In this document: positions 2,913 through 13,509 of the stretch, piece by piece
Layout of the letters: each line of letters starts with the position of its first letter
Position numbering within the stretch: position 1 is the stretch's first letter
Origin: a bacterium
GTDB lineage: Bacteria; Myxococcota_A; Bradymonadia; UBA7976; UBA1532
Direction of reading: 5' to 3'
Assembly: GCA_030426085.1 (NCBI GenBank)
Contig: JAUHYW010000034.1
Coordinates: forward strand, 1 to 64,000
Length of the DNA stretch: 64,000 nt
Notes under the pieces: model-generated
The model's input: only the letters and a program-made list of their open reading frames with translations
Databases searched by the model: none
What the model was told of the DNA's origin: nothing
Program-made: the position numbers and the translations under genes

Positions 2913-3062
2913 GCGCGCCTCCGGGGGTCGGGGATCTCTGGATCGGGTCGATGTCGCCTGCGAGCGCCTGCGACGATCCGATCGTCGCCCGCCGCCGTCA
3001 AGCCCCGGGCGACGAAACCGGCGCCGGGCGGCGCTCGCCACCGGGCCGGGGGCCGGCGACGC

Positions 3063-3461
3063 TCAGCCGAGCGCCGCGAGCACCCGGCGCAGCTTCTCGT
3101 CGGCCTCGGCCATCACCGGCTCGAGCTTCGGGTTGTCGACGACCCCGAACATCGCGCTCGGGTTGGCGATCGACACCGCCGCGCCGTCTCCGTCGGCCTG
3201 CACCACGACGTTGCACGGCAGCATCAGCCCGATCTGCGGCTCGGCGAGCAGCGCCCGGTGGGCCAGCGACGGGTTGCAGGCGCCGAGGATGACATAGGGC
3301 CGGAAGTCGACCCCCAGCTTGCGTTCGAGGGTGGCGCCGACGTCGATCTCGCTCAGCACGCCGAACCCCTCGGCGGCCAGCGCCGCGGTCACCCGCTCAC
3401 GGGCCGCGGCGACGTCCTGCCCGGGCAGGCGGGTCCCGTATCCATACTGCGCGCTCTTCAT
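3063..3461 (-). CDS. DUF302 family protein
   Basis: 132 residues matching the DUF302 pattern: an N-terminal KSAQYGYGTRLPGQDV segment, a two-layer alpha/beta core, the LGACNPSLAHRALLAEPQIGLMLPC block and IANPSAMFGVVDNPKL near the end. DUF302 proteins are small soluble proteins of unknown biochemical role, sometimes next to thiol or sulfur genes. The ATG at 3461 has GGAGG eight bases upstream; the 16-codon upstream extension is rejected. It is separated from the E1 gene (start 2912) by about 150 bp and reads away from the ATPase operon that starts at 3587. Confidence 0.88.
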   Translation of the reverse strand: MKSAQYGYGTRLPGQDVAAARERVTAALAAEGFGVLSEIDVGATLERKLGVDFRPYVILGACNPSLAHRALLAEPQIGLMLPCNVVVQADGDGAAVSIANPSAMFGVVDNPKLEPVMAEADEKLRRVLAALG

Positions 3462-3550
3462 CCGACATCCTCCATCGTTGGGGCCGCGGCGCGGCCGTCG
3501 CGGCGGCACGATAGCCCGATCGACGACACGGGTCGAGGGGCCGCGCCGGC

Positions 3551-3579
3551 TTCACCCGTCGGGGTGCGGGTGCTACAGT
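3551..3579 (+). promoter_or_regulatory. Sigma70-like promoter, probably giving a leaderless transcript
   Basis: A -35-like TTCACC (3551-3556) is followed by a 17-bp spacer and an extended -10, TGC-TACAGT (TACAGT at 3574-3579). The expected start point, about seven bases after the -10, falls on the ATG at 3587, and no Shine-Dalgarno precedes that ATG. Seen directly as sequence; activity is inferred. Confidence 0.5.
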
Positions 3580-3586
3580 CCGCCCG

Positions 3587-4039
3587 ATGACTGGCCCCCG
3601 CCGCGCTGCCGACCTCGCCTCTGCCGCCCTGCGCCATGTGCGCGACGCGGACCACCTGCTCGAACCCGGCCCCCACCGCTCCGTCGATCAAGCGCTGCAC
3701 CTCGCCGGCTTCGGGCCGGAGTGCGTCCGCAAGGCTGCGCTGACGAGCGGGTGGAGCGACCGGATCCTGGGGCACGAGCTCGGCCCCGAAGCCGCCGAGC
3801 GGTTCGACCTCCTCATCGCCCTCGACGCCCACGCCGGCCGGGCGGGGGTCGCCGACTTCGACCGGCGATTCCCGGCGCTCGCCGGCTGGCGGGTCGAGCG
3901 GCGCTACGACCCCACCGGCGCGGCCGACGAGGCCGAAGCCCGGGCCGTCGTCGAGCAGGCCCGGGCGGCGGTCGGGCAGACCTTCGTCACGCTCTGGCTG
4001 GACGGCCGCCTGGACGACGCGCCGGGGGGCGAGTGGTGA
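3587..4039 (+). CDS. HEPN-like helical protein, first gene of an ATPase operon
   Basis: 150 residues, mainly helical. The stretch ADHLLEPGPHRSVDQALHLA followed by GFGPECVRKAAL (residues about 21-52) fits the second and third helices of uncharacterised HEPN proteins, whose typical form is 'A-x-HLAGY-A-x-ECALKA'. The later WRVERRYDP followed by a helix with EARAVVEQARAAV fits the C-terminal half of that fold. No convincing RxxxxH ribonuclease motif is visible, so it may be a non-catalytic HEPN or use other residues. Its stop codon overlaps the GTG of the next gene (GTGA). Context, with two ATPases downstream, suggests a conflict or stress-response module. Family assignment is by pattern only and could be wrong. 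Confidence 0.6.
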   Translation: MTGPRRAADLASAALRHVRDADHLLEPGPHRSVDQALHLAGFGPECVRKAALTSGWSDRILGHELGPEAAERFDLLIALDAHAGRAGVADFDRRFPALAGWRVERRYDPTGAADEAEARAVVEQARAAVGQTFVTLWLDGRLDDAPGGEW

Positions 4040-5388
4040 AGGCCCGCTACGACGACGCGCTGCCCCGGCTCGTGCAGATCGTGCACGGCTGGCCCGGCTT
4101 CGCCGCCGCGGTCGACACGGTGGCGGTGGTGCGCGATCTCAAGGGGCGGCTGCACCTCGTCGGCCAGCCGCGGGCGGGGCATGCACTGGCCGACGCCGAC
4201 GCCCTCGAGGCGCGGTTGAGCGACGCCCTGGGGCTTTGGTTCCGCTCGCCCATCCGGTGGACCACCGATCCCGGCCCGCGCGGCGGGCTGGCCCGGGGGC
4301 TGCTCGAACGCGCCGGCCGCCGCTGGCCGAAGAGCTGGCCGTCGACCTTCGATGACGGCCTCGGCGGGGTGATCGCCCTGCGCCCGGCCGACGCGCCGCC
4401 CGGGCCCGCGCTGCGCTGGGCCGGCACCCAGCGCCTGCTGGCGAAGGAGGAGTGGCTCTCGGACCAGCAGGCGACGCCGCCCTGGCCGGCCCGGGCCGAC
4501 ACGCCCCTCGTCGCGTCGTTCTTCTCGTACAAGGGCGGCGTCGGCCGGTCGACGCTCGTCGCGGTGCTCGCCTCGCGGCTGGTCCGCGAGGGCCGGCACG
4601 TCGTCATCGTCGACCTCGATCTGGAGGCGCCGGGGCAGTCGTCCATCTTCGGGCAGGCGCCGGCCGAGGGGGTCGTCGACTATCTGCTCGAAGCGGCGCT
4701 GGGCGCCGCCGAGTTGAGCGGCATCCCCCGCGATGTCACCGCCGATCGCATCGGCGGGGGCGCCCGGACGGTCGGCAGCCTGCGGCTGGTGCCGGCCGGC
4801 GGGGCCGGGTGGAGCCTGCTCGAGAAGCTGGCCCGCCTCGACTACCTGAGCGCGGGGGACGGCAGCCGCTCGCCGGTGGCTGCGGGGTTGCGCGCGCTCT
4901 TGAAGGCGATCCGGAAGCTCGATCCGGCGCCGGACTACATCCTGCTCGACGCCCGCTCCGGGCTGCACGACCTGGGCGGGCTGTCGCTGCACGCCCTGGC
5001 CCACGTCGACGTGCTGGTGATGCGGGACGACGCCCAGAGCCGGGAGGGCATGGCCATCGCGCTGCGCGCGCTCTGGCAGCGCACCCCGCCCGAAGAGCTG
5101 CGGGTGCTGGTGGTCGAGGGCATGGCCCGGCCGAGCCCGACCGAGGCTGCGGCGGCGACCGGGAAGCTGCGGGACGATCTGCACCCGGTCTTCGCCGAGA
5201 CGGTCTATTCGACGCTGGACGCACCGCCGCAGCCGGAGGACACCGAGGTGCCCCACGACCCGCTGGCGATCCCCCGCAATACGCGGCTGGAGCACCTGGA
5301 GCGGGCGGTGGATGTCTATCCGGCGCTGCTCGACGAGCCATGGGTCGGCGCGCTCCTGGATCGGCTGCACGCGCTGGTGGGCCGCTGA
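4036..5388 (+). CDS. KGGVGR-variant ParA/MinD-like P-loop ATPase
   Basis: 450 residues. Residues 1-155 form a conserved accessory domain (VAVVRDLKGRLHLVGQ; RWAGTQRLLAKEEWL). Residues 156-450 are a ParA/MinD/SIMIBI NTPase with the deviant Walker A SFFSYKGGVGRST (signature Lys at about 166; the second P-loop Lys is Arg at about 171), Walker A' VIVDLDLEAPG and a DYILLDARSGLHDLGG Walker B region. This is the known but uncharacterised 'KGGVGR-motif variant' class, which is not a chromosome partitioning ParA. The GTG at 4036 overlaps the previous stop by four bases, and the gene's own TGA overlaps the ATG of the next (TGATG), so the three proteins are translationally coupled. No parB or parS is present. 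Confidence 0.85.
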   Translation: MKARYDDALPRLVQIVHGWPGFAAAVDTVAVVRDLKGRLHLVGQPRAGHALADADALEARLSDALGLWFRSPIRWTTDPGPRGGLARGLLERAGRRWPKSWPSTFDDGLGGVIALRPADAPPGPALRWAGTQRLLAKEEWLSDQQATPPWPARADTPLVASFFSYKGGVGRSTLVAVLASRLVREGRHVVIVDLDLEAPGQSSIFGQAPAEGVVDYLLEAALGAAELSGIPRDVTADRIGGGARTVGSLRLVPAGGAGWSLLEKLARLDYLSAGDGSRSPVAAGLRALLKAIRKLDPAPDYILLDARSGLHDLGGLSLHALAHVDVLVMRDDAQSREGMAIALRALWQRTPPEELRVLVVEGMARPSPTEAAAATGKLRDDLHPVFAETVYSTLDAPPQPEDTEVPHDPLAIPRNTRLEHLERAVDVYPALLDEPWVGALLDRLHALVGR

Positions 5389-6875
5389 TGGGCGAGGCGC
5401 TGAGCGCCGACGAGCGGCGGGGGCTGCTGGGCGACTTGCAGTCGATGGCCACCGACGCCGACGCGCTGTGGGGCGGCGAGGCCGTGCTGCGCCGCTTCGT
5501 CGCGCTGCCGCTGCACGCGCGTATGTTCGATCCCCAGATCATGGTGATCCGGGGGGCGCGGGGGACCGGCAAGTCGATGGTCTTCCACGCGCTGCGCGCG
5601 CTGCGGGAGAGGGGGTTGCCGGTCCGGGCGCTCTTCCCCGGGGTGGCGGTGGACGATCCCACCTGGATCGAGGGCTTCGCCGAGACCGGGACCGCGCACC
5701 CTGCGGTCCCGGTGGTCGAAGAGTTCGTCCGCGGGGCGAGCGATGACGACCTGCGCATCTTCTGGGTGGTGCATCTGATCGCGCGGACCATCGAGAACCA
5801 GAACCCGCGTGGCTTCGATCAGGCGCGGGGGAGAGCGGGGGATCCGTACGGGGCCTGGCTCGCCAATCGAAACGACGTCCCGGCCTGGGTCGGCGCCGCC
5901 CGGGGCAGCCTCGCGATGGCGACATCCTGGCTCGACGGCCAGGAGCGGCTCCTGGCCGGGCAGGGCCGCACGGTCTTCGTCACCTACGACCACCTCGACA
6001 AGATCGGCCTCGACGACCCGCGGATCCGCACCCGCGCCACCCGGGCGCTGTTGGCGCTGTGGACCTCGCTCGCCAATCGCTATCGCTTTCTGCGGCCCAA
6101 GATCTTCGTGCGGGAGGATCTGTTTCAGCAGTCGACCCATCGCAGCGCGGATGCCAGCAAGCTGCGCGGTCGATCGCTGAGCCTCGAGTGGGACACCCAG
6201 GATCTCTATCGGCTGCTCATCCGTCATATGGCCGCCGAGAGCCACGCCCTCGCCGGTTGGATCCAGCGCCCGCCCGGCGCGGTGCCGCTGAACCGGACAC
6301 CTCACTTCGGCTTGCTGCCCCCGGACTTCCTGCCCGAGACGGGTCCGGTCTCGCAGCAGGGCTTCATCGAGCACCTCGTCGGGGAGCACATGGGCCGGGG
6401 GGTCAAGGCCGGCCGCCCCCATCGCTGGATCCCGGGTCGCCTCCAGGATGCCCACCGCCGCATCGCGCCCCGCTCGCTGCTGACCTTCGTCGCCGCCGCC
6501 GCCGAGCGCGCCCTGCGCGATGGCCCGCAGGCCAAGGGGAGCCGTCTGCTGCACCCCGACGAGCTGCGGCACGCCATCGATGAGGCGTCGCGGCAGAATG
6601 TGGATCAGATGGCCGAAGAGCACCGGGTCATCTGGCGCTTGGAGAACCTGCGCGGCGCGGTGCTGTTGCTCGATCCCGATGAGACCGCCGACACGCTGGC
6701 CGCGCCCCGCCCCAACGTGGTGGACGGCTTCGGCGAGGACGGGCGGTGGGTGGTGGACGAGCTGCTGCGCATCGGCGTGCTGCGGCGGCGCCACGACGGT
6801 CGGCTCGACGTGCCGGACATCTATCGCTTCGCGTTCGGCATCAAGCGCAAGGGCGGGGTCGCGACGCCGCGGTGA
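5388..6875 (+). CDS. P-loop ATPase partner of the KGGVGR ATPase
   Basis: 495 residues. The Walker A is MVIRGARGTGKSMVFHALRA (GxxxxGKS at about 56-63), followed by an AAA/STAND-like region with a Walker B-like VFVTYDHLDKIGLDD segment near residue 200 and FRPK/REDLF motifs (LRPKIFVREDLF) typical of sensor strands in such ATPases. The C-terminal third (from about residue 330) is helical and ends in a winged-helix-like segment (VVDELLRIGVLRRRHDGRLDVPDIYRFAFGI). It may be the regulatory or target-recognising partner for the HEPN-like and KGGVGR proteins. ATG at 5388 overlaps the upstream stop. Not a DNA helicase or transporter by any motif I can see. Confidence 0.7.
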   Translation: MGEALSADERRGLLGDLQSMATDADALWGGEAVLRRFVALPLHARMFDPQIMVIRGARGTGKSMVFHALRALRERGLPVRALFPGVAVDDPTWIEGFAETGTAHPAVPVVEEFVRGASDDDLRIFWVVHLIARTIENQNPRGFDQARGRAGDPYGAWLANRNDVPAWVGAARGSLAMATSWLDGQERLLAGQGRTVFVTYDHLDKIGLDDPRIRTRATRALLALWTSLANRYRFLRPKIFVREDLFQQSTHRSADASKLRGRSLSLEWDTQDLYRLLIRHMAAESHALAGWIQRPPGAVPLNRTPHFGLLPPDFLPETGPVSQQGFIEHLVGEHMGRGVKAGRPHRWIPGRLQDAHRRIAPRSLLTFVAAAAERALRDGPQAKGSRLLHPDELRHAIDEASRQNVDQMAEEHRVIWRLENLRGAVLLLDPDETADTLAAPRPNVVDGFGEDGRWVVDELLRIGVLRRRHDGRLDVPDIYRFAFGIKRKGGVATPR

Positions 6876-7126
6876 GGGCCCGGCTCGCGGGGGGCTGATC
6901 CAGCGCCGGCCCGCACACCCATTGACCCATCCACTCTCGGCAACGCGTCTCGGGTGACGAGGCGCCCCACGAGCCGGGTGCCGCAGGTGGCCCCATCGGG
7001 TGGTGCGGCAGTTGGCTGACGGTGGCCTGGGGAGCCGTCCCGAGGCTACAGCGCGTCAGGGGCGTTTCGCCCGATCGCCCGGTCTGATAAGGTCGCGCGG
7101 ATCATGTGCCGAACGGGAGGATCACC
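6876..7126. other. Intergenic region after the ATPase operon
   Basis: 251 bp without a gene. It contains a short inverted repeat, TGCCGCA at 6979-6985 and TGCGGCA at 7004-7010, which might be a weak terminator hairpin for the ATPase operon but lacks a T tract. TCTGATAAGG near 7081-7090 could be the -10 region for the lipoprotein gene. Confidence 0.35.
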
Positions 7127-7564
7127 ATGCGCGTCGTGTACTTGTCGGCCGCGACCCTCGCCCTGGCCCTCGCCGGATGCGGCGGCGGCCCGCCCCCCGC
7201 GCCGAAGGCCGAAGAGGCCCCGCCCGAGGCGCCCGCGCCGGACGAGGCCAACCCGTGCGACAGCGTGAGCATCGATCCCACCGAGAACCCCTGCGCCGGG
7301 CCGGCGGCCGACGCGGCGAAGGCCGAGGCCGAGGCGGCGGGCGCCGGTGAAGCCGGGGGCGAGGCGGCGGGGGTCGGCAGCGAGGGTGAGAGCGGCGACG
7401 CCGCGGGCAGCGAGGGCGAGAGCGGCGACGCCGCGGGCAGCGACGCCGCGGGCAGCGACGACGGGGCCGGCGCCGACGAGGGCAGCGCCGACGAGGGTGA
7501 CGCGGACGGCGACGACGCGACGGGCGAGGGCGGGGACGCCGAGCCCGGGGCCGGCAGCGACTGA
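7127..7564 (+). CDS. Low-complexity acidic lipoprotein
   Basis: 145 residues. The N-terminus MRVVYLSAATLALALAGC is a lipoprotein signal with lipobox LAGC (Cys at 18), so the protein should be lipid-anchored. After Pro/Ala-rich residues (PPPAPKAEEAPPEAPAPDE) there is one short Cys-containing motif (NPCDSVSIDPTENPCAG), then the rest is Ala/Gly/Asp/Glu/Ser low complexity with an imperfect repeat (EGESGDAAGS). The ATG at 7127 has GGAGG seven bases upstream. It ends 17 bp before the giant TPR gene and is probably co-transcribed with it. No enzymatic domain is visible. Confidence 0.82.
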   Translation: MRVVYLSAATLALALAGCGGGPPPAPKAEEAPPEAPAPDEANPCDSVSIDPTENPCAGPAADAAKAEAEAAGAGEAGGEAAGVGSEGESGDAAGSEGESGDAAGSDAAGSDDGAGADEGSADEGDADGDDATGEGGDAEPGAGSD

Positions 7565-7581: not shown

Positions 7582-10500
7582 ATGGCCACCGCCGAGCAGC
7601 GTCGACGCAGCCACTTCTCGCTGCGGCTCGAACAGGGCCTGGGCCGGCTCGTGCTCAGCGAGCGCCCGGTCGGTCGCCTGTTCTGCGTCGAAGATCTGCA
7701 GCTGGCGCTGCCCGAGGTGCCCTCCCGCATCGACATGAGCGGCGGCGTCGAGCGCTTCCGCCACCAGCGGTCGCGGCTCGAGCGCATGGTGCTCTACGCC
7801 GAGGATCAAGACATCGGCCGCGCCCTGCGGGCTCGCCTGCGGGGCGGCCCGGTCACCGACGTCGAGGTCCGCGCGCTCGACGGTGAGCTGGTCTTCCTGG
7901 GCGAGCTGTCCGAGGCGGCGACGCCGTTCATCGCCCGGGCCCGCATCGAGCCGGCGAGCGTGGCCGACGAGCGGGTGCTGCTGGTCAGCGTCTACGCCCT
8001 CCGCATCTTCGGCCCGGCTCGCATCGCGGCGCCCCTGGTGGCCGCCGAGCTGCTGCGGGGCCTGGGGCTGGGCGAGCGGCTGAGCGGGCCGAGCCTCGCG
8101 ACGGTCGATCCGGTCGACATCCTGCTGTTGGAGATCTGCGCCGAGCTGGGGTGGAAGGCGCCCGACCGGCGCGATGTGCGGCTGGTCGAGAGCCAGTGCA
8201 CCGCGGGGCGCATCCGGCTGACGACGGCCCGCCAGCAGAAGGGGCGGGTCGGGCCCCGGGGGCTGGCGCTCGAGAACACCTCGCGCTCGCGGCGGTTTCT
8301 GGCGGACTACGAGGCCAAGACGCTCTACGCCTCGACCGAGGCGCTCATCGAAGAGGGGCAGATCGAGCGGGCGATCACCGCCTACGACCGCCAGCACGAG
8401 GTGCACCCCGATCATCCCTTCCTGGTCAACCGGCTGCTCCAGCTCAACGTGACCCCCGCCGGCAACCTGGCCGACGCCGCCGCGCTGGCCAAGGCCCGGC
8501 TGGCCCGCTACCCCGACGACCTCGACGCGCTGTGCGCCCTGGCGGTGGTGCAGCAGCGGCAGGGGCAGCCCAATTCGGCGGCGGCGACGCTGAGCCGGCT
8601 GGCCGAGGTGGCCGAGCAGACGGGCGATACGCTCGAGGCGGCCCAGGCCCGCTGCGCGATGGCTGGCGCGCTGGCCGAGAGCGACCCCCCGGCGGCGGTC
8701 CGGGCGCTGGAGGCGGCCCTGGCCCTGCGGCGGCGGCTGCCCGGGGCGCTGCGGGCGCTGGCCGACTTGCAGTCGCGCACCGGCGATTGGGCGGCGGCGC
8801 TGCGCACCCGGGAGCGGCTGCTGGCCCGGGAGGAGGATCCCGACGCCCGGCAGGCGCTGTTCCACTCGCTGGGTCAGGTGGCGCTGGAGCAGGCCGGTGA
8901 TCTGGACGCGGCGGTGGGCTACTTCGAGCGGGCGCTCGAGGCCCAGCCGGAGGACGTCGAGGCGCTGATCGGGCTGGCGACGGCCCAGGAGCGCGCCGGG
9001 CGGGTGCTGCCGGCGGTGCGCACGCTCGACCGGGCGGCGCGCATCCTCCAGGAGCGGGGCGATCACGTCGCCGCGGCCGACGCGATGGTCCGCCTGGGTG
9101 ATCTGTGGCGCCGCGATCCGGCCGAGGGGTCGGCCACGGCGGCCCTGCGCTATCGGCAGGCGCTGATGCTGGTGCCGGGTCACCCGGGCGCGCTCTTCGG
9201 GCTGGCCGAGGCGGCGCTGGCCGACGGCGAGCCGGCCCGGGCCCGCAACGCGCTCGAGGAGCTCCTGCGGGTCATCGACGAGGGCCGGGTCGACGTCGAT
9301 CGCAACGCGGTCTACCTGCGGCTGGGCGAGGTGCTCGCCGGCCCCAACGGCGACCCCCCGCTGGCGGTGGCCTACTACCAGAAGGCGCTGAGCGGCACCG
9401 AGGCCCAGGCCGAGCGGGCGCTGGCGGCCCTCGAGGAGCTGCACGCCCGCGCCGAGCGGTGGGACGACGTCACCCGGGTGCTGGAGATGGCCGTCGAGCG
9501 GGCGCCCGATCCGGTGGCGAAGGGCCAGCGGCTGGCCCGGCTGGCGGGGGTGGTGCGCGCCCGCCACGACGATGAGCTGCGGGCGGTGAAGCTGCTCGAA
9601 GAGGCGGCGACGCTGCGGCGGGACGACCCCGCGGTGCTCGAGTCGCTGGCCACCATCCACCGCGAGGGCGGGCGGCACGCGGCGCTCGAGGCGGTGCTGG
9701 GGCGAATCTGCGATCGGCTGGAGGCCCCCGAGCGGCTGGCGGCGACCTACGCCGAGCGGGGCGATCTGCTGCGGCTGCACCTCAACCGCACCGACGACGC
9801 GGCGCAGTGCTACTCGCTGGCCCTGGGCTGCGCGCCCGACCACCGCGAGGCGCTGGAGGGGCTGGCCGACATCTACCGCGAGCGGGAGCGCTTCGGCGAG
9901 CTGGCGACGCTGCTGGAGCGGCTGGCGTTGGTGCTGCCGGCGAGCGAGTCGGGGCTGATCTGGCTCGAGCTGGGGCGCTTGCAGGCCCGGGTGCTCGACC
10001 GCCCGCGGCCGGCGGTCGACAGCTACGAGAAGGCCCGGGTGCGCCGCCCGGACGACCCCGAGGTGCTGCGCCCGCTGGGTGATCTGCTGTTCGAGCAGGG
10101 GCGGCCGGCGGTGGCCCTGCCCCACTACGAGGCGCTGTACGGCATCTACGAGGCCGAGGGCTACGACGAGCCCCAGGCGCCGTTCCTGCTGCGCATCGCC
10201 GAGGTGCTCGACGCGCTCGACCGGGGGGCCGACGCGCTGGCGTACCTGCAGAAGGCGGCCGAGGCCGACCCCGATCGCATGGCGGTCTACGAGCAGGCGC
10301 AGGATACGCTGCTGCGCCAGGGCGACGTCGAAGGCATCGTGCAGTTCTTCGAGGCCGGGTTGAAAGAGGCCCTGCGCCCCAGCGTGCGGCGGTTCCTGGC
10401 CAAGCGCGCCGGGCGGCTGGCGTGGCGCGAGCTGCGCCGGCCGGAGCAGGCGGCGCCGCTGCTCGACGAGGTGCTGCGGGGCGACCCCGAGGACACCGAC

Positions 10501-13500
10501 GTGCGCCGCATGCGGCTCGAGGTGGCGACCGCCCTGGCCGACTGGCCCCGAGTGGCCGAGCTGCTGCGGGCCCAGCTCGAGCGGGCCGAGGCCCGGGAGC
10601 GGCCGGCGCTGCTGACGAGCCTGGCCAAGCTGGCCTACACCGCGCTGGAGCGCCCCGACGAGGGCACCCAGCTCGCGCTGGCGGCGCTGGGCGAGCAGCC
10701 CGACTATCAGCCGGCGCTGACCCTGCTCGGCGAGCGCAGCTTCGCGGCGAGCGACTGGGTCAACGTGCGTCGGGCCTACGCCGGGCTGGCCGAGGCCGAG
10801 GGTCGGGGCGCCCGCCCGGAGGACGTCTATCGGCTGGCGCTGGCCGAGCGGGCGCTGGGCGAGGAGGACGCGGCCCGGGTCCGTCTGGCGCGGCTGCACG
10901 CCGACGGCCGCATCCCGCCCGACGGGCTCGATCTGCTGGTGGCGCTCTTGATCGAGGCCGATGACGCCGAGGCGCTGGCGGCGGTGCTCGACGACCGGCT
11001 GGCCCTGGGCGAGCCGCTGGCCGATCGGCGGGCGGTGCTGCGGGCGGTGGCCCGGGTGCTCGGGCGGCACGAGGCGCAGCGTCAGCGGGCCCTCGACTGC
11101 TGGGAGGCTCTGCTCGATACGCTGCCCGACGACCCCGAGGCGCTGGCCGCGCTGCGGGCCGGGGGGCGGCTGCCCGAAGAGGAAGAGCCCCAGCCGCTGG
11201 AGATGCCCGGCCTGCCCGAGCCGACGGCGCCCGAGGGGGCCCGGCGGCCGGGTCGGGCGCTGCATACGCCCCGGGTCGATCCTCCCGAGGCGACCCCGTC
11301 CGCTGGGCCCACGCCCGATGCACCGACCCCCGATGCCCCCACCTCCGACGCGCCCGCCGCGAGCCCGTCCGAGCCCCCGCCCGACGCGGCCGAGGTCATC
11401 GAGCGGCTCGCGGCCCGGGGCGGGGCGGGCGAGCCCGATCAGCGGCCCTTCGTCGAGCGGGAGGCGTCCGAAGGGCCCGACGACGAGCTGCCGCCGCTGG
11501 AGATCGACCCCGACGCGAGCGCCCGCGAGGCGGCCCACGGGCGGGCCGCGGCGCTGGAGGCCGAGCTGGCCGAGACGGTCGAGCCCGACGCCCGGGCCCG
11601 GCTGTTCCTGGAGCTGGCCGAGCTGCGCCGCGATCGGCTGCACGACCCCGACGGCTCGGTGCCGGCCTTGATCGGGGTGCTGGACAACGCCGAGCCCGCC
11701 GGGCCGCTGTGGGTCGAGGCGCTCGAAGCCCTCGAAGATCTGCACGCGCTGCGCGAGGAGTGGGACGCCCTGCTGGCGCTCTACGACCGCCGGGAGCAGG
11801 CCGGCATGGGCACCGCGGCCGAGCTGAACCTGCTGCGGGCGTCCATCCTGCGCACCGCGGGGCGGCTCGACGAGGCGATCGCGGCCGCCGAGCGGGCCGC
11901 GCCGACCGGCGGGCGGGCGCTCGATCTGCTGGTGTCGCTGCTGCGGTCGGCCGGTCGGGTCGAGGAGGCCGCCGCCCGGGTGCTGAAGGGGCTCGATCGC
12001 CTGTCGCCGGTCGAGGCGGCCCACCGCCGCTGGCGGGCGGCCGAGCTGCTCACCGAGGGCGACCCGCCCCGGGCGCTGGCGCTGCTGGCCGAGGCCCACG
12101 CCGAGATCGACGATCCCGAGGTGGTGGAGCAGTGGATCGCGCTCGCCCGCCGGGTGGACGACGCCCGGGCGCTGCTCGACGCGCTCGAGGCGCAGGCGGC
12201 GACGCTGGGTGACTCGGGCCCCGACGCGGTCCGCCGCTCGTCGGCGCTGGCCGAGGCCGGCGCGCTGGCGGCCGATCAGGGCGCGCCGACCCGCGCCCGG
12301 CGGCTGTTCGAGGCCAGCCTGTCGGCGTGGCCGGACAACGTCGAGGCGATGGAGCACCTGGCCGGCGTGCTGAGCGGCGTGAGCGATCACGAGGCCCTGG
12401 CCGATCTGCGGGCCCGCCAGATCGAGGCGGCCTTGCCCGGCCCCCACCGGGGCGAGCTGGCGCTCGATCTGGCCCGGCTGTTCATCGACGCGCTGGGCGA
12501 CGTCGACGGCGCCGAGCGGTGGCTCGACATGGCCGCGGCCGATCTGGAGGGCACCGACGCCTTCTCCGCGGTGGTCGGGCTGCGCGGCCGGCGGGCGGCG
12601 CCGCCGCTCGACTGGAATACGCTGGCCGAGCGGGCCCCGGACGAGGTCGTCGACGCGCTGGTCGAGCGGGCCGAGGCGCTGGCGGCCGATCCCCGGGCCC
12701 GTATGGAGGCCGCCCGCCTGCTCGAGGAGGCGCTGGGCCTCGCCCCCCACGTCCAGCGGGCCTACGCGCTGCTGGAGAGCATCTACGCCGGCGAGCAGCG
12801 CTGGGGCGAGCTGTGCGGGGTCATCGAGCGCCACGTCGCGACCATCGGCGCCCGCCCCGAGCGGGCCGAGCTGCTGCTGCGGCGGGCCCGCATCACCGAG
12901 CGGGCCCTGGGCGACGACGAGGGCGCGGCGGGGGCCTACGAGCGGGCGCTGATCGATCCGGCGGGCACGGCGCAGGTGGTGGCGGCGGCGGTCGACGCCC
13001 TGGTCGTGCTGCGCCCCCGGCGGCTCGATCTGGAGCGGGTGCGGCGGCTGCTCGACGAGCGCATCGATCACGCGGCCGACGACCGGGTCCGGGCCGGGCT
13101 GCACACGGTGCGGGGCGTGCTGTGGCAGAGCCGGCTGGGCCACATCGGTCGGGCCCGGGCCGATCTCGAGGCGGCGGTCCGCCTCGACCCGCGCCACGGC
13201 CGGGCCCACCTCGCGCTGGGGTTGATGGCGCTCGACCGGGGCGACGCCTCCGACGCGACGGTGCACCTCGACCGGGCGCTGCTGAGCGACGGCGGCACGC
13301 TGACCCCAGCCCAGATCGACGAGGCGTTCGAGGGCCTGCGCCGGGCGCTGGAGAAGCTGGGGCGGGCCGACGAGGTGCCGATGCTGGCCGAAGAGGTGCT
13401 CGCTCGCCACCCGGACGCGCGGGCGCCGCGGGCCGTCGCCGGGGACGACTCGGTCGAGACCGCGCCGCTGCCCGAGCTGCCCCCGCCGGACACCACCGAC

Positions 13501-13509
13501 GTCGACTGA
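7582..13509 (+). CDS. Giant tetratricopeptide-repeat protein
   Basis: 1975 residues, almost entirely helical. Residues 1-230 are a non-TPR N-terminal domain (starts MATAEQRRRSHFSLRLEQ; motif RMVLYAEDQDIG). From about 240 TPR motifs run to about 1190 (e.g. AVGYFERALEAQPEDVEALI, GLATAQERAGR), then a Pro/Thr/Ala-rich linker at about 1195-1300 (TPDAPTPDAPTSDAP), then a second TPR block to about 1955. No signal peptide or transmembrane helix, so it is probably a cytoplasmic scaffold. Such very long TPR proteins are frequent in myxobacteria. The start at 7582 follows GGGAGCGGGGACG. A 2102-codon open frame on the opposite strand is an artefact of GC-rich codon usage. Confidence 0.85.
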   Translation: MATAEQRRRSHFSLRLEQGLGRLVLSERPVGRLFCVEDLQLALPEVPSRIDMSGGVERFRHQRSRLERMVLYAEDQDIGRALRARLRGGPVTDVEVRALDGELVFLGELSEAATPFIARARIEPASVADERVLLVSVYALRIFGPARIAAPLVAAELLRGLGLGERLSGPSLATVDPVDILLLEICAELGWKAPDRRDVRLVESQCTAGRIRLTTARQQKGRVGPRGLALENTSRSRRFLADYEAKTLYASTEALIEEGQIERAITAYDRQHEVHPDHPFLVNRLLQLNVTPAGNLADAAALAKARLARYPDDLDALCALAVVQQRQGQPNSAAATLSRLAEVAEQTGDTLEAAQARCAMAGALAESDPPAAVRALEAALALRRRLPGALRALADLQSRTGDWAAALRTRERLLAREEDPDARQALFHSLGQVALEQAGDLDAAVGYFERALEAQPEDVEALIGLATAQERAGRVLPAVRTLDRAARILQERGDHVAAADAMVRLGDLWRRDPAEGSATAALRYRQALMLVPGHPGALFGLAEAALADGEPARARNALEELLRVIDEGRVDVDRNAVYLRLGEVLAGPNGDPPLAVAYYQKALSGTEAQAERALAALEELHARAERWDDVTRVLEMAVERAPDPVAKGQRLARLAGVVRARHDDELRAVKLLEEAATLRRDDPAVLESLATIHREGGRHAALEAVLGRICDRLEAPERLAATYAERGDLLRLHLNRTDDAAQCYSLALGCAPDHREALEGLADIYRERERFGELATLLERLALVLPASESGLIWLELGRLQARVLDRPRPAVDSYEKARVRRPDDPEVLRPLGDLLFEQGRPAVALPHYEALYGIYEAEGYDEPQAPFLLRIAEVLDALDRGADALAYLQKAAEADPDRMAVYEQAQDTLLRQGDVEGIVQFFEAGLKEALRPSVRRFLAKRAGRLAWRELRRPEQAAPLLDEVLRGDPEDTDVRRMRLEVATALADWPRVAELLRAQLERAEARERPALLTSLAKLAYTALERPDEGTQLALAALGEQPDYQPALTLLGERSFAASDWVNVRRAYAGLAEAEGRGARPEDVYRLALAERALGEEDAARVRLARLHADGRIPPDGLDLLVALLIEADDAEALAAVLDDRLALGEPLADRRAVLRAVARVLGRHEAQRQRALDCWEALLDTLPDDPEALAALRAGGRLPEEEEPQPLEMPGLPEPTAPEGARRPGRALHTPRVDPPEATPSAGPTPDAPTPDAPTSDAPAASPSEPPPDAAEVIERLAARGGAGEPDQRPFVEREASEGPDDELPPLEIDPDASAREAAHGRAAALEAELAETVEPDARARLFLELAELRRDRLHDPDGSVPALIGVLDNAEPAGPLWVEALEALEDLHALREEWDALLALYDRREQAGMGTAAELNLLRASILRTAGRLDEAIAAAERAAPTGGRALDLLVSLLRSAGRVEEAAARVLKGLDRLSPVEAAHRRWRAAELLTEGDPPRALALLAEAHAEIDDPEVVEQWIALARRVDDARALLDALEAQAATLGDSGPDAVRRSSALAEAGALAADQGAPTRARRLFEASLSAWPDNVEAMEHLAGVLSGVSDHEALADLRARQIEAALPGPHRGELALDLARLFIDALGDVDGAERWLDMAAADLEGTDAFSAVVGLRGRRAAPPLDWNTLAERAPDEVVDALVERAEALAADPRARMEAARLLEEALGLAPHVQRAYALLESIYAGEQRWGELCGVIERHVATIGARPERAELLLRRARITERALGDDEGAAGAYERALIDPAGTAQVVAAAVDALVVLRPRRLDLERVRRLLDERIDHAADDRVRAGLHTVRGVLWQSRLGHIGRARADLEAAVRLDPRHGRAHLALGLMALDRGDASDATVHLDRALLSDGGTLTPAQIDEAFEGLRRALEKLGRADEVPMLAEEVLARHPDARAPRAVAGDDSVETAPLPELPPPDTTDVD

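What the first reader, a model, noticed from the sequence alone, without database searches (positions are those of the whole stretch)
3587..6875. Three-gene HEPN-like / KGGVGR-ATPase / P-loop ATPase operon, candidate conflict system
Seen: three genes overlap by stop/start codons. The first has a HEPN-like helical pattern, the second has a Walker A in which the second Lys is Arg (KGGVGRS) behind a conserved N-terminal domain, and the third has a GARGTGKS ATPase with a winged-helix-like end. Known: HEPN proteins are recurrent RNase effectors in defence and toxin systems, and KGGVGR ATPases are a named but uncharacterised class. Inference: the two ATPases sense and switch, the HEPN-like protein is effector or adaptor.
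Basis: partly seen in the sequence, partly recalled or inferred. Interest (0 to 1): 0.75.

Follow-up and report, generated by a model that had tools for sequence, protein, structure and literature searches.

The report
HEPN–ParA–AAA+ three-gene defence candidate
Three adjoining bacterial genes encode a small helical HEPN protein and two ATPases that travel together across many bacteria and sometimes sit inside known anti-virus systems; the set is already listed in a defence database as an untested candidate, so it is real and probably an immune module, but not a new discovery.

Summary
Observation confirmed. Gene A (3587-4039), gene B (4036-5388, KGGVGR) and gene C (5388-6875) overlap as an operon. 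The set is already in PADLOC-DB as phage-defence candidate PDC-M28: A, B and C match M28A, M28B and M28C (6e-8, 3e-50, 1e-59).
The HEPN call holds as a fold: AlphaFold2 (pLDDT 85) matches solved HEPN domains best, and two homologues pass Pfam HEPN. The canonical HEPN RNase motif Rx4-6H is not conserved in the family, so 'RNase effector' is unproven.
B is a ParA/MinD-like ATPase whose P-loop lysine is Arg in all 42 relatives examined. C is an ORC/Cdc6-STAND-type AAA+ ATPase (pLDDT 88; top Foldseek hit is the BREX ATPase BrxC) with a C-terminal winged-helix-like element.
The order A-B-C holds in genomes, plasmids and IMG/VR contigs from several phyla; B and C are fused in some; the three proteins co-evolve. 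In three plasmids the triad sits inside BREX-2 operons.
Best explanation: a mobile three-component immune module in which ATPases C and B sense and switch and A is effector or adaptor. Function was not tested here, and I found no published experiment in the papers I could search.

The parts
3587..4039 (+). Gene A: 150-aa HEPN-fold protein (PADLOC PDC-M28A), PF05168-like, without a conserved Rx4-6H RNase motif; has the Ex3K motif (E45-x3-K49); H17, G41, E45, K49, W101, R106, Y107 invariant and R16, H63 nearly so
   Evidence: relatives pass Pfam HEPN; invariants; AF2 model; best matches are HEPN structures; motif scan
4036..5388 (+). Gene B: 450-aa ParA/MinD-like (SIMIBI) ATPase of the KGGVGR family (NCBIfam NF047398; PADLOC PDC-M28B) with a ~155-aa N-terminal domain of unknown fold
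   Evidence: 139.8 bits, cut-off 90; 3.4e-50
4525..4554 (+). B motif SYKGGVGRST: deviant Walker A in which the P-loop Lys is Arg (R171)
   Evidence: Arg at this position in all 42 B proteins checked
5388..6875 (+). Gene C: 495-aa ORC/Cdc6-STAND-type AAA+ ATPase (NCBIfam NF047389 'Sll1717 family'; PADLOC PDC-M28C) with a C-terminal winged-helix-like element
   Evidence: 78.4 bits, cut-off 75; 1.2e-59
5553..5576 (+). C Walker A GARGTGKS
   Evidence: G56, G59, G61, K62 invariant

Best explanation
A mobile three-component immune (anti-phage or anti-element) module, a member of the candidate class PDC-M28. Shown here: gene order, folds (predicted), co-evolution, B-C fusion and occurrence inside or beside defence operons. 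Inferred: C, an ORC/Cdc6-STAND-type AAA+ ATPase resembling the ATPase core of BrxC, senses invading DNA or another infection cue and assembles. It works with B, a ParA/MinD-like protein whose Arg-substituted P-loop suggests a nucleotide-bound switch rather than a fast hydrolase. The B-C unit then releases or positions the HEPN protein A. A acts either as an RNase using non-canonical residues (H17, E45, K49, H63, R106) or as an RNA- or protein-binding adaptor.
For: All three PADLOC PDC-M28 models match. The triad is conserved: 17 of 19 IMG/VR loci found with B have A upstream, and 18 have C downstream or fused; it is also in 12 of the 17 plasmid regions opened and in most genomes of the window's phylum that have C. 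B and C are fused in one protein in ten loci. Distance matrices of A, B and C correlate (rho 0.77, 0.77, 0.87; none of 2000 permutations reaches them). The triad lies inside BREX-2 operons in Streptomyces NBC_01334, Thiodictyon and Sphaerotilus plasmids and near an HmaA-like helicase, HsdR or a TIR protein elsewhere. Integrases flank several copies. A has the HEPN fold. C's best Foldseek match is BrxC. In the sister species the triad is on another contig at 63-64% aa identity, whereas the flanking genes are 88-93% identical.
Against: No functional data here. The window copy has no PADLOC-recognised neighbour among nine flanking proteins to 24.7 kb. Six of 12 plasmid triads have no evident defence neighbour, and no matched control for neighbour enrichment was run. 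A lacks a conserved HEPN RNase motif, so an RNase effector is not demonstrated. B's Arg P-loop may abolish nucleotide binding altogether. Plasmid homologues of C exist without A and B.
Confidence: 0.65

Rival explanations
1. Toxin-antitoxin-like module: HEPN protein A is a toxin held in check by ParA-like B (with C), stabilising the mobile element that carries it. This is the model proposed in 2013 for the MAE_18760 HEPN + ParA/Soj gene pair (PMC3710099).
For: HEPN next to a ParA-like ATPase; plasmid and integrase-linked distribution. Anantharaman et al. 2013 postulate this for a similar dyad.
Against: A lacks a conserved Rx4-6H toxin motif, whereas MAE_18760 is recorded as having it. No A protein tested hit such a Pfam family. 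The obligatory large AAA+ partner and embedding inside BREX-2 fit a sensor system better than a two-gene TA pair.
Confidence: 0.15
2. BREX accessory: the module is a backup arm of BREX-2 that responds to BREX failure or shares its DNA-recognition apparatus.
For: Three plasmids of distantly related bacteria carry it inside pglW/pglX/pglZ/brxD operons. C's fold is closest to BrxC in Foldseek. HEPN proteins in Pgl/BREX operons are described as auxiliary (PMC3710099; PMC12839542).
Against: Most triads, the window included, have no BREX genes nearby. In this genome PglZ matches lie on other contigs.
Confidence: 0.12
3. Partition or cell-division role: B acts as a ParA/MinD-type positioning ATPase and C as a DNA-binding loader.
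For: B's ATPase domain matches ParA/MinD/ArsA. C resembles ORC/Cdc6 and TnsC DNA-binding AAA+ proteins. Several copies are on plasmids.
Against: Patchy presence (14 of 284 genomes have C), chromosomal copies, no ParB or centromere partner seen, loss of the P-loop Lys, and recurrence in defence operons.
Confidence: 0.04

Closest known systems
PADLOC PDC-M28 (phage defence candidate)
   Same: All three proteins match M28A, M28B and M28C. This is the same system.
   Different: The window copy is divergent, especially A (31 bits). No mechanism or experiment was found; the PADLOC name itself returns no papers.
MAE_18760 HEPN + ParA/Soj ATPase dyad (Anantharaman et al. 2013, PMC3710099)
   Same: A small HEPN gene next to a ParA/MinD-like ATPase gene.
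   Different: Different HEPN family that is recorded as keeping Rx4-6H; no AAA+ third gene described; proposed as a TA pair.
HEPN-T family (PF05168), including human sacsin HEPN and AF_0298
   Same: Best structural matches (Z 11.8 and 11.3); has the Ex3[KR] motif. The 2013 survey notes PF05168 proteins in which the motif His is replaced but a His is conserved elsewhere, and clustering with R-M operons.
   Different: Identity only 12-19% to solved members; A is a near-constant partner of B and C.
BrxC N-terminal ATPase (BREX) and archaeal ORC/Cdc6
   Same: Top Foldseek matches of C (E about 1e-5); Cdc6p Z 12.8 and PABY2304 Z 12.5.
   Different: C has 495 residues with about 12-14% identity. It is far shorter than BrxC (1200-1300 residues according to PMC12839542) and is not part of a BREX operon in the window.
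Inactive MinD/ParA-like domains of VMAP-ternary and AP-ATPase systems (Kaur et al. 2020, PMC7159879)
   Same: MinD/ParA-like domains in conflict systems that are predicted inactive; B's Arg P-loop is compatible with that.
   Different: B is a stand-alone or C-fused component with its own N-terminal domain, not an effector domain on vWA or AP-ATPase proteins. I did not test whether theirs carry KGGVGR.

Membership tests
PADLOC PDC-M28 | Homologues of M28A, M28B and M28C together in one operon | tested here: met
   6.4e-8, 3.4e-50 and 1.2e-59 for A, B, C, adjacent in that order
PADLOC PDC-M28 | Demonstrated anti-phage activity | not testable with these tools
   Candidate only; no papers found with the name
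HEPN superfamily | HEPN helical fold | tested here: met
   AF2 pLDDT 85.2, pTM 0.81. The 18 best rows are HEPN entries or nucleotidyltransferase/uncharacterised structures; top Z 11.8 over 121 residues, and unrelated helical bundles start at Z about 7.2. Z alone is not decisive for helical bundles; two A relatives also pass the PF05168 cut-off by sequence
HEPN superfamily | Rx4-6H RNase motif | tested here: not met
   The conserved Arg of W-x4-RY is followed by His at +5 to +7 in only about 3 of ~40 relatives; several A proteins have no Rx4-6H at all
HEPN superfamily | Ex3[KR] motif | tested here: met
   E45 and K49 invariant in 18 diverse sequences
HEPN RNase effectors | RNase activity or toxicity | not testable with these tools
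   Needs biochemistry
KGGVGR ATPases (NCBIfam NF047398) | Score over curated cut-off and KGGVGR motif | tested here: met
   139.8 bits against 90; motif in the sequence
Sll1717-family P-loop ATPase (NCBIfam NF047389) | Score over curated cut-off | tested here: met
   78.4 bits against 75
AAA+ ATPases, ORC/Cdc6-STAND type | AAA+ core with C-terminal winged-helix-like element and Walker motifs | tested here: met
   AF2 pLDDT 87.8; Cdc6p, PABY2304, ORC2, CED-4, NLR and BrxC matches; GxRGxGKS, D-x-L-D. Clade assignment rests on fold resemblance only
BREX type 2 | pglX, pglZ, brxC/pglY at the locus | tested here: not met
   No PADLOC family in nine neighbours to 24.7 kb; PglZ matches of the genome are on other contigs
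MAE_18760 HEPN + ParA dyad | HEPN of the MAE_18760 family with Rx4-6H | tested here: not met
   No such Pfam hit for 11 A proteins; motif not conserved

The most novel reading that the evidence does not exclude
A distinct immune machine in which an ORC/BrxC-like AAA+ sensor and a ParA-like protein with an invariant Arg P-loop (a nucleotide-locked switch) jointly control a HEPN protein that works without the Rx4-6H active site, by a new catalytic site or as a non-catalytic adaptor.
Probability: 0.35. Interest if true: 0.75.

Novelty: new member of a known kind. Interest (0 to 1): 0.45.

Why it matters
The triad is widespread, moves between genomes, recurs inside BREX-2 operons and is already flagged as a defence candidate, yet I found nothing on how it works. 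The analysis turns a database label into testable parts: an HEPN protein without the usual active site, a ParA-like ATPase whose P-loop lysine is always arginine, and a BrxC/ORC-like AAA+ partner that is sometimes fused to it. If it works as proposed it would give a function to one branch of the uncharacterised KGGVGR ATPases and another example of a stand-alone module that can be plugged into BREX.

Tried and rejected
1) A as canonical HEPN RNase: motif scan negative, so downgraded to effector or adaptor. 2) 'KGGVGR ATPases are generally HEPN-linked': rejected. In 269 genomes, 35 members pass the family cut-off; about 15 are of the triad type with C, and those of the others that were fetched have neither A nor C in their short flanks. 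3) Empty-site argument: the genes flanking the window triad are on different contigs in every relative searched, so only a synteny breakpoint can be claimed, not a clean insertion. 4) Phage genomes: no match to C. 5) PDB sequence search with A and C profiles: no convincing relatives; fold search was needed. 6) genome-contig scan gave only three loci. 7) Literature: KGGVGR, Sll1717 and PDC-M28 give no papers; the 2026 BREX survey does not mention MinD, SIMIBI or Sll proteins. The Payne et al. 2024 preprint (10.1101/2024.01.29.577857), which from memory I take to be the source of the PDC labels, was not readable here.

Full report
What is there. Three plus-strand genes follow each other with overlapping stop and start codons: A 3587-4039 (150 aa), B 4036-5388 (GTG start, 450 aa) and C 5388-6875 (495 aa). 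To the left, divergent, lies a DUF302 gene (3063-3509) and then a dehydrogenase E1 gene; to the right lie a small protein and a giant TPR protein.

What the parts are. PADLOC-DB assigns the trio to one candidate system, PDC-M28: A to M28A (6e-8), B to M28B (3e-50), C to M28C (1e-59). Sixteen of 18 A proteins from the aligned set match M28A. B also passes NCBIfam AAA_KGGVGR (139.8 bits, cut-off 90) and C passes ATPase_Sll1717 (78.4, cut-off 75).

A is HEPN by fold. AlphaFold2 on an 18-sequence alignment gave pLDDT 85 and pTM 0.81. VIA-align ranked sacsin HEPN (Z 11.8, 2.7 A, 121 residues), AF_0298 (Z 11.3), TT1696 (Z 11.1) and other HEPN entries at the top. Foldseek's own E-values were weak (0.34 at best), but its first four rows have probability 0.91 to 1.00 and two of them are titled HEPN domains. 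A helical bundle can reach Z about 13 without true kinship, so I rely on the consistency of HEPN entries and on sequence: A homologues from Calothrix and Nostoc pass the Pfam HEPN (PF05168) cut-off, and two records annotate A homologues as HEPN. Invariant or nearly invariant residues are R16, H17, G41, E45, K49, H63, W101, R106 and Y107. E45-x3-K49 is the Ex3[KR] motif described for HEPN domains in PMC3710099. The Rx4-6H RNase motif is not conserved: the conserved Arg of W-x4-RY has a His at +5 to +7 in only about three of some 40 relatives. The same survey notes PF05168 members in which the motif His is replaced while a His is conserved elsewhere and could contribute to activity. So A may be catalytic by other residues or may be a binding domain; this is open.

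B is a SIMIBI ATPase of the ParA/MinD/ArsA kind by profile, with an N-terminal domain of about 155 residues of unknown fold. The P-loop position that is Lys in ordinary ParA proteins is Arg in all 42 triad B proteins checked, including fused forms where the preceding signature Lys is also Arg (RGGAGRT, RGGSGRT). Kaur et al. 2020 describe MinD/ParA-like domains in other conflict systems as predicted inactive.

C is an AAA+ ATPase of the ORC/Cdc6-STAND type. The model has pLDDT 87.8 and pTM 0.87. Foldseek puts the BREX ATPase BrxC first (E 1e-5), then Aeropyrum ORC2. VIA-align gives Cdc6p (Z 12.8), PABY2304 (Z 12.5 over 315 residues), TnsC, CED-4 and NLR cores. These are fold resemblances of middling strength and show no function.

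Conservation. A sample of 284 genomes of the phylum has C in 14. Nearly all have B next to it in the order A-B-C; four loci have B and C fused, three of them with an A-like gene upstream and one cut by or lacking it. In IMG/VR contigs a scan with B found 19 loci, of which 17 have A upstream and 18 have C downstream or fused. In plasmids 20 records hold C; of 17 regions opened, 12 carry the triad (one as A plus a B-C fusion) and five Streptomyces plasmids carry C alone. The triad spans Cyanobacteria, Actinomycetota, alpha-, beta- and gammaproteobacteria and the window's own phylum. Pairwise distances of A, B and C correlate at rho 0.77, 0.77 and 0.87 over 36 loci, with none of 2000 permutations as high.

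Context. The triad is inserted in BREX-2 operons of a Streptomyces plasmid (pglW-[ABC]-pglX), a Thiodictyon plasmid and a Sphaerotilus plasmid. Other neighbours are an HmaA-like helicase (Calothrix), HsdR (Nostoc) and a TIR-domain protein (Enterobacter). Among 91 neighbouring ORFs, nine are phage-type integrases. I ran no matched control for these neighbours, so the enrichment is qualitative.

In the window's own genome the triad has no PADLOC-recognised neighbour among nine proteins to 24.7 kb. In the same-genus genome the three genes are on another contig with aa identities of 63.7, 62.8 and 63.8%, while the genes flanking the window copy are 88% and 93% identical and sit on two other contigs that lack the triad at that place; no DUF302 match was found in that genome. 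blastn similarity between the sister triad locus and the first 15 kb of the window covers only 3614-6876, the operon itself. The window copy therefore sits at a synteny breakpoint and the triad moves or diverges as a unit. dN/dS is about 0.4-0.55: fast but under constraint.

Limits of the KGGVGR link. Of 35 KGGVGR proteins over the family cut-off in 269 genomes, about 15 are the triad type; the others, where fetched, score far lower with the triad B profile and have neither A nor C in their short flanks. So one KGGVGR subfamily is HEPN-linked, not the class.

How it most likely works. Sensor and switch are C and B: near-constant neighbours, repeatedly fused, one an AAA+ fold with a winged-helix-like tail, the other a ParA-like protein with an altered P-loop. 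The output is probably A. This direction is inference. Rivals are a toxin-antitoxin arrangement, as proposed in 2013 for another HEPN plus ParA pair, a BREX accessory, and a partition function; see the fields above.

Verdict. Observation confirmed; interpretation partly supported; the system is a member of an already listed but, as far as I could find, uncharacterised candidate class.

Noticed in passing
window 3063-3509: DUF302 gene divergent from A with a 77-bp intergenic gap; no match in the same-genus genome, so it lies within the breakpoint segment (about 3047-7055) together with the triad.
   Followed up: partly
L055, L056, L058, L059, L060: Five Streptomyces plasmids carry a C homologue with intact P-loop but no detectable A or B, some next to replication- or transfer-type plasmid genes: a possible independent role of the C family.
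   Followed up: partly
L034 3054-5621, L036 1841-4609: Fused B-C proteins whose deviant Walker A reads RGGAGR or RGGSGR, so the signature Lys is also Arg (L035 likewise reads RGGAGR).
   Followed up: partly
L024 127-2384 (-), L031 10354-11928: Apparently decayed copies: L024 has a B lacking the P-loop part and no detectable A; in L031 C is split by an in-frame TAG.
   Followed up: no
L046 6468-6643: In the same-genus copy A and B are separated by about 175 bp instead of overlapping.
   Followed up: no
window 7106-7564 and 7582-13509: Small Gly/Asp/Glu/Ser-rich repeat protein followed by a 1975-residue TPR protein; the latter has relatives in most members of the family.
   Followed up: no
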